Assembly: GCA_018292915.2 (NCBI GenBank)
Contig: JACVVK020000460.1
Coordinates: forward strand, 478,935-542,934
DNA length: 64,000 bases
DNA from: Batillaria attramentaria
Taxonomy: Eukaryota > Mollusca > Gastropoda > Batillariidae
Reading direction: 5' to 3'
Positions 13,670 to 31,363 of this stretch are shown here, piece after piece. The position numbers and the translations under genes were made by a program. The notes beneath the pieces were generated by a model, which saw only the letters and a list, made by a program, of their open reading frames with translations, did not search any database and was not told the DNA's origin. Positions within the stretch are counted from its first letter, which is position 1. The number at the start of each line of letters is the position of its first letter.

Positions 13670-16600
13670 ATGGATGAAGTCCATAGCAGCAGGTCTGTCA
13701 GAGTCTTGGAGGATCCTGTCCTCCTGCATTTGCTGGCCACCATCAAGCAGCATCAAGAGCCCATGTGCAGGCTGGCATCTCTCTTCATGCTCAACAGTCT
13801 CTTCAGGCAGTCACTCGTGCCTCGGCGGGCGACCTTCTGCTTTTCTGAGGGGCTGCTCCTGGTGCTTATGGACATTCTCAGCAAAGACTTTGACCCCAGA
13901 GATCCGAACAACGACGCTCAGCTTTACACTTTGGCAGCGGAGATCATCTGGAGGTTCAGTAGCCTTCCAGTCAGCGAACAGGGCCCGCTGATCTCAAATG
14001 GGGTCATCCGTGGGCTTGTTCAGTTTTTACGGACTGACAGCAAGTATTACCAGTTTACACCTGTTGTTGCTGAGGCGCTGGAGAGAATTTGCGGAGGGAG
14101 ACTTTTCACTGAACAAGAAGTGCGTGCACTGCCGATCACACCCAAGGTTGGTCTGCATTCAGCATACATGCATGTGTAAAGAAGGCAGATTTACTTGAAC
14201 TCTCGGTGAGGTGGGGTTCCATAAATGGAATGGGTGCTAGTCTATTATTTTAAGAGAAGTAAAATTGGAGATGCAGACATCTTGAGATATGAATTTAATG
14301 TATGTTTAGCTGCAGCAAAATAAAAGAGCAGTATGCAGTGCTTTAGTTTAAATATCTGTGGGAAGTCCCTTAACTGTAATATATATTACCTTGGTAAGAA
14401 AGTAATGGGACAATTTGAAAATGAATTAGTCTCAGACTGATGTCTCATGCGGATATGAAACCTTGGGTTTGGTGTACTGATTCCAGAACTAATGTAAACT
14501 TGTCGCCATACTAACAAAGTGATCATGATTACCATGATCCTGTTCGTTTCGTAAACCTGGAAGATCATTCTTTTTGATGTTGGGTTTTTAAACCTGTGAT
14601 CGATGGAAGATGTGAAAGTCTACTGACAGTGACAGTTAACTAGCATTTGTTTTTGTTACAGATACTGGACAACCTGAAGATGTACAACCAGGATGTTGTC
14701 AAGTATTCCAAAGTCCAGCATGTTTACGCCTGCAAACTTTCTCTCCAGCTACCAGATGAGGCCAAGTGGATTTCTCTCGCAGACCTGTTCGTGAGGGAAG
14801 GGTATGCATGGCCCATGTGCCAGTTACAGCAGAAGAAATTGTCCCCACCAACTTCTCCGAGCAGCCGTCCTCGGTCATCACCAGCAAAACTCCCATCTCC
14901 ATCGTCAGCTTCCCCAGAGTCGCCTCCCCTCCAGACAGCCATTTCTGCCACATCAGAAAAATCCATCCCATCTTCAAAACAGTCTACAGTGAAATCTCAA
15001 AGTTCTCCAACCTCCTCACACCACGAGATGGTTCATGATGCGACTGAGGTGAAATTTCTGCGAGCAGTTGGCGGAAATTATTTCTGGGCCCAGATTGGGG
15101 CAGACTCGATCAAATCCGTGAACTCAGTCACACAGTTACTGACAATGGCTTTGCCAGACTTGAAAAATGTGGCACCCAAGATAGGAGAAGTTGTGGCGGT
15201 CAGGCTGGAGCAGGCCGACGCTAACGTCCCGCAGGCGATACGCGGACGCCTGGTGGATGTGCAGGATGCGTGGGTGATGATTCAGTCGCTGGACTTTGGC
15301 TTCACTAAGATCGTGAAAGACAGTGAGATTTTTGGACTGACAGGGACTGTGGCGTGTCTGACGAAGTTCCCACCACAGGCACAGATTTGTTATCTGGCAG
15401 GTGAGCTAACTGATTAACTCATTCTACACCGAGCACGAGTATACTCGTACCAACGTGTTCGTCCGTTGCCGACCAGGCACAAGTATACTCGTACACAGCG
15501 ATTCCCACTTTGAAAAGGTTCCTTTATGGCTCAAGCCCACTGATTTCTTAACCGGTTCACTTCACCCACTTCCGAACTGTTTATGGAAGCAGGAATGCAG
15601 CGTGTTGTGTTCAAAACGAAGAAGAAGCAAATTTTCTCAGAGTTTTTTTTTTTCACACCAGAATTTGAACTGCGTGTATTTTCAAATTTTGAACATTGCC
15701 AAAGCAGAGCAGAGGGGGAGAAAGCTGGAGAACCCAGACTCAACTCGACGCTCGGCCCGAATGAACTGTGCCACATACAAGAGGGAAAAATTCTTAGCCC
15801 AAAAATGGCAAAATGGGATTTGAACCTGACCTCTCCCATCAGTGACAAAGTCTTAAAGCGGCACCTTGCAGGATGAGCAGTTCCCTCCATGTCACAGATG
15901 CTGCCACTACTGAGTCAGTGGTTCTCCGAAAGCGTATTTTAGAGCTTCATAAACTTACGATGTCGTCATTGACCATGTGTGAGTTGCACTGAGACGATCA
16001 CTTTGTCATAGCTACAGTCTGTTTTAATGCAAACGTGTCACTTCACTTGCAAGTGAAGTGGGGCGGCAGGCGCATGCTTTGGCTCTTGTCTTAGCAACAA
16101 CAGCCCCCAAATGGGTCATATTTTTCACTCATCTAAATGATACCATCTCCCTGTCACCATTACAGGCCTAGGTTGGTCTCTGAACCTTGAAAACCTGCAG
16201 GAATGCAGGGTTCGCATTAACTGGCAATTACCAGTAAATTACTGGTTATAAAGAGGAAATACTGGAAATTTTTAAGCTGTCAGTCCCGGGGACTGGTTTT
16301 ATTTTGCTGGGACTGGTTACAGATTTATGGGAGAAAAAATAAAAATGAACAGGCTGATCGTAAAAAGAAAAAAAAATGTTGATGGTTCATACAAATTTTG
16401 TGGCCCAGGCTTGACTAGTGGCACTTGCCTTATCTCTCTGAATTGTGCTTGCAAGAATGTACATCATTATTTGTAGTGCTACCGGATTTTTTTCACAGGG
16501 ACTGGTTTTGCTCAGAGTCGCTGAAAAACGGTCAGGGTAGGAGGCGAGGGTACTGGTTTTGCAAAATCCTAGCGCGAACCTTGGGAATGATGTATGTTTA

Positions 16601-31363: not shown

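What the first reader, a model, noticed from the sequence alone, without database searches (positions are those of the whole stretch)
13670..31363. Single gene joining armadillo-like repeats, an extended Tudor domain and a Schlafen AlbA_2 domain
Seen: twelve phase-consistent exons read as one protein with a Tudor core (SLDFGFTKIV, PPQAQICYLAG) and an AlbA_2 core (GLGGSVYFGLTKDGQVQGI). Known: Tudor domains recruit methylated PIWI proteins. In C. elegans the piRNA 5'-end nuclease PUCH is built from separate Schlafen-like (TOFU-1, TOFU-2) and Tudor (TOFU-6) proteins. Inference: the two halves fused in one polypeptide would link this gene to piRNA or germline RNA processing outside nematodes and could show the ancestral arrangement.
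Basis: partly seen in the sequence, partly recalled or inferred. Interest (0 to 1): 0.8.

Follow-up and report, generated by a model that had tools for sequence, protein, structure and literature searches.

The report
Snail gene joining Tudor and Schlafen
A mud-snail gene that appears to encode one protein combining a scaffold (armadillo-like repeats and a probable Tudor domain) with a Schlafen-type RNA-enzyme module whose cutting site looks broken, an unusual arrangement whose function is untested.

Summary
The window is from the gastropod Batillaria attramentaria. Thirteen (not twelve) phase-consistent exons, 13664-31363 on +, encode 865 residues identical to the public predicted protein BaRGS_00035031. 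SLFN_AlbA_2 is solid (Pfam 1e-7); Tudor and Arm are borderline. Linker exons 7-9 look coding, but no transcript was seen. "Extended" Tudor is not shown.

TOFU-6 belongs to PETISCO, not PUCH. The Schlafen lobe lacks an intact Glu-Glu-Asp triad in either plausible register. The Tudor keeps one of three cage aromatics examined and lacks the Asn. No relative was found in three protein searches of low sensitivity, so "ancestral arrangement" cannot be judged. The genome also holds a SLFNL1-like gene with the same module and the triad motif.

Best reading: a scaffold carrying a non-catalytic Schlafen lobe, perhaps pairing with a catalytic lobe in trans. A new variant of known kinds; a piRNA role is a hypothesis.

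The parts
13664..14146 (+). Exon 1 (aa 1-161): helical, armadillo-like N-terminal region; start codon of the public model at 13664
   Evidence: exons; helices in low-to-medium-confidence models; no Pfam Arm match here
14662..15400 (+). Exon 2 (aa 162-408): Ser/Pro-rich stretch, then probable Tudor domain (Pfam 289-408 of P0001)
16671..16757 (+). Exon 3 (aa 408-437): Tudor-ARM transition
20955..21119 (+). Exon 4 (aa 437-492): Arm repeat (Pfam 442-473)
22133..22264 (+). Exon 5 (aa 492-536): helical, armadillo-like
23245..23383 (+). Exon 6 (aa 536-582): helical, armadillo-like
25807..25963 (+). Exon 7 (aa 582-634): acidic linker
   Evidence: held-out codon score above 3000 of 3000 controls
27338..27401 (+). 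Exon 8 (aa 635-656): acidic linker
   Evidence: held-out codon score, 0.0003 of controls as high
28012..28101 (+). Exon 9 (aa 656-686): linker and start of the Schlafen module
28339..28452 (+). Exon 10 (aa 686-724): DETHHIYK motif (694-701) and first helix of SLFN_AlbA_2
29457..29681 (+). Exon 11 (aa 724-799): SLFN_AlbA_2 core with GLTKDG (K735 at the third-acid position)
30481..30581 (+). Exon 12 (aa 799-832): C-terminal strands of SLFN_AlbA_2; a second donor at 30587 is also in phase; codon score not above controls
31262..31363 (+). Exon 13 (aa 833-865 and stop): C-terminal helix, aligned with that of the C518 gene

Best explanation
A real animal gene encoding one scaffold protein: armadillo-like repeats and a probable Tudor domain without a complete methyl-arginine cage, an acidic linker, and a C-terminal Schlafen lobe of the SLFNL1-like kind (AlbA_2 plus C-terminal helix) that lacks an intact catalytic triad. 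Most likely mechanism: the ARM/Tudor part docks on protein partners, and the Schlafen lobe acts as the non-catalytic half of a two-lobed Schlafen nuclease or RNA clamp, as the N-lobe does in mammalian Schlafens and TOFU-1 does beside TOFU-2; the SLFNL1-like protein with the triad motif encoded in the same genome (C518) is a candidate catalytic half. Shown here: exon series and its identity with the public model, the AlbA_2 domain, homology of the module to the C518 gene, absence of the intact triad. Probable: Tudor, ARM. Inferred: single transcript, pairing, RNA target, germline or piRNA setting.
For: 13 exons in phase, identical to the public protein. Linker exons 7-9 score as coding. SLFN_AlbA_2 1e-7 whole, 8e-9 as a piece; Tudor 6.6e-5 as a piece; Arm 3.5e-4 whole. 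The Schlafen module aligns with the C518 gene from the first motif into the C-terminal helix: Smith-Waterman 108, 0 of 1000 shuffles as high, highest 55. C518 has ESRHSEFK and GVNDAG, Pfam 64.8 bits. Window: D694/I699/K735, or H697/E702/K735 in the other register; [quoted passage not shown] With 50 bacterial and archaeal AlbA_2 rows the model has an alpha/beta module at 685-830 and helical repeats at 18-142 and 416-564; Foldseek's best rows are armadillo or HEAT proteins. hhalign of the Tudor stretch to nine Batillaria Tudors: E 9.4e-4, ARM control 0.43.
Against: No RNA evidence. Five poly(A)-type hexamers lie between exons 6 and 10 (about the chance number by my own estimate) and none in 31364-33000. 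Tudor is weak: below cut-off in the whole protein and in a longer piece, hhalign probability only 22, not among 31 genome matches of PF00567, and modelled as helices, at pLDDT block means of about 25-53, in the better model. Arm falls below cut-off in a piece. No relative from another species was found. Foldseek: none of 776 matches at E <= 0.001, TM-scores to the query 0.07-0.15 in the 50 rows shown, no Schlafen among those 50. The motif region 691-700 has mean pLDDT 47, so the model does not settle the register. Pairing with the C518 protein was not tested.
Confidence: 0.42

Rival explanations
1. Two neighbouring genes, one ARM-Tudor (exons 1-6) and one SLFNL1-like (exons 9-13), merged by gene prediction.
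For: No transcript seen; poly(A)-type hexamers between exons 6 and 10; the module resembles the separate C518 gene; both kinds of domain also occur elsewhere in this genome.
Against: Linker exons 7-9 have coding-like codon usage (0 of 3000, 0.0003, 0.016) and keep phase, and the public annotation joined exactly the same exons.
Confidence: 0.25
2. A one-piece piRNA 5'-end processing factor like a fusion of the TOFU-6 eTUDOR with a Schlafen-like lobe.
For: Domain co-occurrence; in C. elegans the eTUDOR of TOFU-6 binds TOFU-1 outside the cage (passages), so a cage-poor Tudor beside a non-catalytic lobe fits TOFU-1 better than TOFU-2.
Against: Triad not intact; no RRM among the Pfam matches; no expression data; ping-pong signatures are reported for two molluscs (passages), and a need for a PUCH-like enzyme there is not shown.
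Confidence: 0.12
3. A Schlafen-type factor in antiviral or translation control, with ARM/Tudor as targeting parts, unrelated to piRNAs.
For: Mammalian Schlafens act on tRNA and on viral replication (PMC5862951 and PMC13245857, passages).
Against: The activities reported in those passages need the triad residues that are not intact here.
Confidence: 0.15

Closest known systems
SLFNL1 (single Schlafen lobe, testis-enriched)
   Same: C-terminal AlbA_2 lobe followed by a helix; the C518 gene in this genome has the same module. That C518 is the SLFNL1 orthologue rests on the human sequence as I recall it and was not tested.
   Different: No ARM or Tudor known to me in SLFNL1; triad motif present in C518, not intact in the window gene.
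C. elegans PUCH (TOFU-1, TOFU-2, SLFL-3/4) with PETISCO TOFU-6
   Same: Schlafen-like lobe and a Tudor in one pathway; TOFU-1 also lacks potential catalytic residues (section 5).
   Different: Separate proteins; TOFU-6 is not a PUCH subunit; homology beyond the shared folds was not tested.
Two-lobed Schlafen RNases (SLFN12, SLFN13, SLFN14)
   Same: AlbA_2 lobe with the same motif positions.
   Different: One lobe only here, and the E/E/D triad is not kept.
Tudor proteins of the piRNA pathway (for example TDRKH, Vreteno)
   Same: Tudor core and a PPQA..C.LAG-like end.
   Different: Cage columns hold I354, S370, F373 and F375 (one aromatic kept, Asn lost); ARM and Schlafen parts in the same chain.

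Membership tests
SLFN_AlbA_2 (PF04326) | Profile match above the curated cut-off | tested here: met
   32.9 bits, cut-off 25.3; residues 700-829 of P0001, profile 7-117 of 118
Catalytic Schlafen RNase | Glu-Glu-Asp triad (rat SLFN13 E205, E210, D248; passages) | tested here: not met
   D694/I699/K735 (and by extending the Pfam register past its matched stretch) or H697/E702/K735 (H697 by spacing)
Two-lobed Schlafen core | Two AlbA_2 lobes in one chain | tested here: not met
   One matched stretch in the whole protein
TUDOR (PF00567) | Profile match above the curated cut-off | tested here: inconclusive
   23.4 bits in a 128-aa piece, 20.5 in a 282-aa piece, 18.1 in the whole protein, cut-off 23.0; hhalign to nine Batillaria Tudors E 9.4e-4, probability 22, ARM control E 0.43; not among the 31 matches of the genome search
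Methyl-arginine-binding Tudor | Aromatic cage and Asn | tested here: not met
   Columns Y 9 of 9, F/Y 8 of 9, Y/F 8 of 9, N 8 of 9 in the nine Tudors aligned, eight of them from one contig; I354, S370, F373, F375 in the window gene, so one aromatic kept. Which columns form the cage is recalled, and a fourth cage residue was not examined
Extended Tudor | SN-like parts on both sides of the Tudor core | tested here: inconclusive
   The stretch before the core is within the Pfam match; after residue 408 both models show helices, but both model the Tudor region at low confidence
Armadillo repeat | Repeated Arm units | tested here: inconclusive
   One unit at 442-473, 21.0 bits against 20.6 in the whole protein, 17.3 in a piece; helical repeats modelled; Foldseek best rows armadillo/HEAT with E >= 4.9e-3 and low TM-scores
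SLFNL1-like | AlbA_2 lobe plus C-terminal helix, homologous over the whole module | tested here: met
   Against the C518 gene: SW 108, 0 of 1000 shuffles as high, highest 55; C518 as SLFNL1 is recalled, not tested
PUCH | Trimer with a catalytic SLFL subunit that cuts capped precursors | not testable with these tools
   needs biochemistry; the window lobe alone lacks the intact triad
piRNA factor | Germline expression, binding to PIWI or precursors | not testable with these tools
   no expression data held; genome searches for PF02171 (Piwi) and PF13091 (PLD) did not complete (PF02171: 11 tries, PF13091: 3 tries)

The most novel reading that the evidence does not exclude
A lophotrochozoan counterpart of the PETISCO-PUCH link in which the Tudor scaffold and the non-catalytic (TOFU-1-like) Schlafen lobe are one polypeptide that pairs in trans with the SLFNL1-like catalytic lobe encoded at C518 to make an RNase acting in germline small-RNA processing; this would also point to a function for vertebrate SLFNL1.
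Probability: 0.1. Interest if true: 0.85.

Novelty: new variant of a known kind. Interest (0 to 1): 0.4.

Why it matters
If the single transcript is confirmed, this is a domain arrangement that I did not see in the listings of five searches of an open-access library (Schlafen with Tudor and piRNA, AlbA_2, invertebrate, SLFNL1/mollusc, TOFU-1/PUCH; some searches showed 20 of 30, 12 of 16 and 15 of 16 papers). It would give a concrete candidate for a Schlafen-Tudor link outside nematodes and a testable partner pair (window gene and C518 gene) for the orphan SLFNL1 module.

Tried and rejected
Considered and set aside: 'extended' Tudor (not shown on the C-terminal side); residues 180-212 as an SN-like piece (no PDB sequence match at E <= 10); an active nuclease (triad not intact in two registers). 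Led nowhere: three protein searches found only the protein itself (1 of 7991, 1 of 72 and 1 of 2194 candidates), weak evidence of absence because they need shared 5-residue words; the PDB sequence searches with the two domains gave no significant Schlafen match (rSAMD9 0.24, SLFN12 0.68) and no Tudor; single-sequence AlphaFold2 (mean pLDDT 39.5) was not used for fold search; NCBIfam gave nothing; the genome search with PF04326 missed the window gene itself, so it undercounts split genes. Alignment A1 misplaced the first motif and was replaced by A2 with trimmed rows. A2 favours the register with E702, whereas the C518/SLFN alignment and the Pfam register favour D694/I699/K701; I prefer the latter because the eight motif residues fit better and the gap to the closest relative is shorter, but I report both. 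Of the 80 loci kept (156 confirmed), 50 were used as rows, picked by hand for span and variety without a fixed rule; 30 were dropped. Of the 31 Tudor matches, the nine nearly complete ones were aligned; eight lie on contig C226, so they are not independent.

Full report
What the sequence is. The window is bases 478935-542934 of contig C460 in a 715,342,989-base, 863-contig assembly. Size and scaffold number agree with the published Batillaria attramentaria genome (0.715 Gb, 863 scaffolds; PMC10382545, passages), and the protein search returned a Batillaria attramentaria protein.

Gene model. By joining open frames at GT-AG borders, with the start held at 13670, I obtained 16 near-identical 13-exon readings that differ only by alternative sites a few bases apart. 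With the start moved to 13664, one of them equals the public protein P0001 (hypothetical protein BaRGS_00035031) letter for letter, 865 residues (found). A search of the whole assembly with P0001 gave 13 matches at E <= 0.01 (19 candidates scored), all of them this gene's own exons. To ask whether the connecting exons are more than chance, I trained codon frequencies on exons 1, 2, 4, 5, 6, 10 and 11 and scored the others against 3000 random stop-free intron segments each: exon 7 none as high, exon 8 0.0003, exon 9 0.016, exon 3 0.0013, exon 13 none, exon 12 0.20. Two limits: background and controls come from the same introns (plus 2.5 kb downstream), and the trained exons themselves, left out one at a time, score only -0.001 to 0.125 per codon against a control mean near -0.165. 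This supports exons 7-9 as coding but does not show one transcript. The public annotation used Augustus, Trinity transcripts and Exonerate (passages); I do not know which supports this gene. Five AATAAA/ATTAAA hexamers lie between exons 6 and 10, about what chance gives by my own estimate, and none in 31364-33000.

Domains. Pfam: SLFN_AlbA_2 at 700-829 of P0001 (1e-7, 32.9 bits, cut-off 25.3); Arm at 442-473 (21.0 against 20.6; 17.3 in a piece); TUDOR at 289-408 (18.1 in the whole, 20.5 in a 282-residue piece, 23.4 in a 128-residue piece, cut-off 23.0). A genome search with PF00567 listed 31 matches from 55 candidates, and this Tudor is not among them. A profile comparison of the Tudor stretch with nine Tudor domains of the same genome aligned the core and the PPQAQICYLAG end (E 9.4e-4, probability 22), while an ARM stretch of the same protein gave E 0.43. 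So the Tudor assignment is probable, not certain. AlphaFold2 on one sequence failed (mean pLDDT 39.5). With 50 bacterial and archaeal AlbA_2 sequences as further rows it reached 57.0: an alpha/beta module at 685-830 with block means from 44 to 93 (47 at the motif, 691-700), a C-terminal helix at 85-96, helical repeats at 18-142 and 416-564, and a Tudor region modelled as helices at about 25-53, which speaks against a Tudor barrel but at no useful confidence. Foldseek against the PDB gave 776 matches at E <= 10 and none at E <= 0.001; the best rows are armadillo and HEAT proteins (SYS-1 4.9e-3, importin alpha, Armc8), with TM-scores to the query of 0.07-0.15, and no Schlafen is among the 50 rows shown.

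The Schlafen lobe. In the same genome PF04326 finds two places, C518 and C314 (2 matches, 3 candidates scored; the window gene itself was missed, so this undercounts). The C518 gene, whose last four exons I read, has the same module: AlbA_2 (64.8 bits) followed by a helix. The window module aligns with it at Smith-Waterman score 108; 0 of 1000 shuffles are as high, the highest being 55. C518 carries ESRHSEFK and GVNDAG, the form of the Glu-Glu-Asp site. [quoted passage not shown] In the window gene the aligned residues are D694, I699 and K735 by alignment with C518, SLFN12 and SLFN14; the Pfam match starts at profile position 7 on Y700, and extending it backwards gives the same register. An ungapped alignment to bacterial and archaeal AlbA_2 instead puts E702 at the second position (50 of 50 rows have E there), which by spacing puts H697 at the first; K735 sits where 30 of 50 have D, and D736 where 20 of 50 have D. 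In neither register is the triad intact.

The Tudor. Nine nearly complete Tudor matches of the genome were aligned (9 of 31; eight on contig C226, one on C152). The column of Y in WYRA is Y in 9 of 9, F/Y before the D in 8 of 9, Y/F after it in 8 of 9, and N in 8 of 9. The window gene has I354, S370, F373 and F375 there: one of the three aromatics is kept and the Asn is lost. That these columns form the methyl-arginine cage is recalled, and a fourth cage residue was not examined; that cages bind methylated arginine and that cage-independent binding exists is in PMC10711660 (passages). Binding of methylated PIWI through this domain is therefore unlikely.

Literature. PUCH is a trimer of Schlafen-like proteins (abstract); [quoted passage not shown] TOFU-6 is a PETISCO subunit whose eTUDOR binds a peptide of TOFU-1 outside the cage; potential catalytic residues were found in TOFU-2 and not in TOFU-1; SLFNL1 is testis-enriched, has a single SLFN fold and was dispensable for spermatogenesis (PMC10567574: sections 4 and 5; passages). 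A correction concerning that crystal structure exists (PMC11358023, listing only). Five searches did not show me a paper on a Tudor-Schlafen fusion (judged from titles and abstract beginnings; three of the listings were cut). Molluscs have piRNAs with ping-pong signatures (PMC6128900, passages).

Interpretation. I take this as one gene for a scaffold with a non-catalytic Schlafen lobe. Two SLFN folds make the nuclease in mammals and single-fold proteins combine in C. elegans (section 5), so a lobe without the triad most plausibly pairs with a catalytic one; the C518 protein is a candidate. Pairing, RNA target, tissue and any piRNA role are inference. The claim of an ancestral arrangement cannot be assessed: three protein searches found only this protein (1 of 7991, 1 of 72 and 1 of 2194 candidates), but they need shared 5-residue words and can miss diverged relatives, and no other mollusc genome was available.

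Odds.

Noticed in passing
31438-32327: Twelve 74-bp tandem copies, 99% alike, begin 75 bases after the gene's stop codon, possibly within its 3' untranslated region.
   Followed up: no
58074-58484 and 61707-62051, minus strand: Exon-like frames with MLLE (PABC) pieces: two stretches in the first (8.5e-12, 45.4 bits) and a weaker one in the second (7.2e-5, 23.2 bits, below the cut-off of 27), suggesting a gene or genes with several MLLE domains.
   Followed up: partly
3186-4105, plus strand: Two exon-like frames of a GDP-fucose protein O-fucosyltransferase (PF10250; 33.4 and 28.7 bits, cut-off 31.5), an upstream neighbour on the same strand.
   Followed up: partly
35187-37967, minus strand: A 927-codon open frame with endonuclease and reverse transcriptase domains, a LINE-type retrotransposon.
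   Followed up: partly
about 19780-20070, 22280-22620, 26210-26600: By eye, intronic copies of one repeat with a tRNA-like head, SINE-like; not tested with a tool.
   Followed up: no
51368-52588: A 35-bp tandem array of 35 copies, lying within long open frames in all three plus-strand frames.
   Followed up: no
L003/L004 (G000 C518, about 14780-21917): SLFNL1-like gene whose predicted end is CNVM, a possible prenylation signal; an upstream exon-like stretch has no Pfam match.
   Followed up: partly
L002 (G000 C314:755602-755814, minus strand): A further Schlafen-type frame with EGKQIQFK in place of ExxxxEFK and a possible second lobe in another frame upstream.
   Followed up: no
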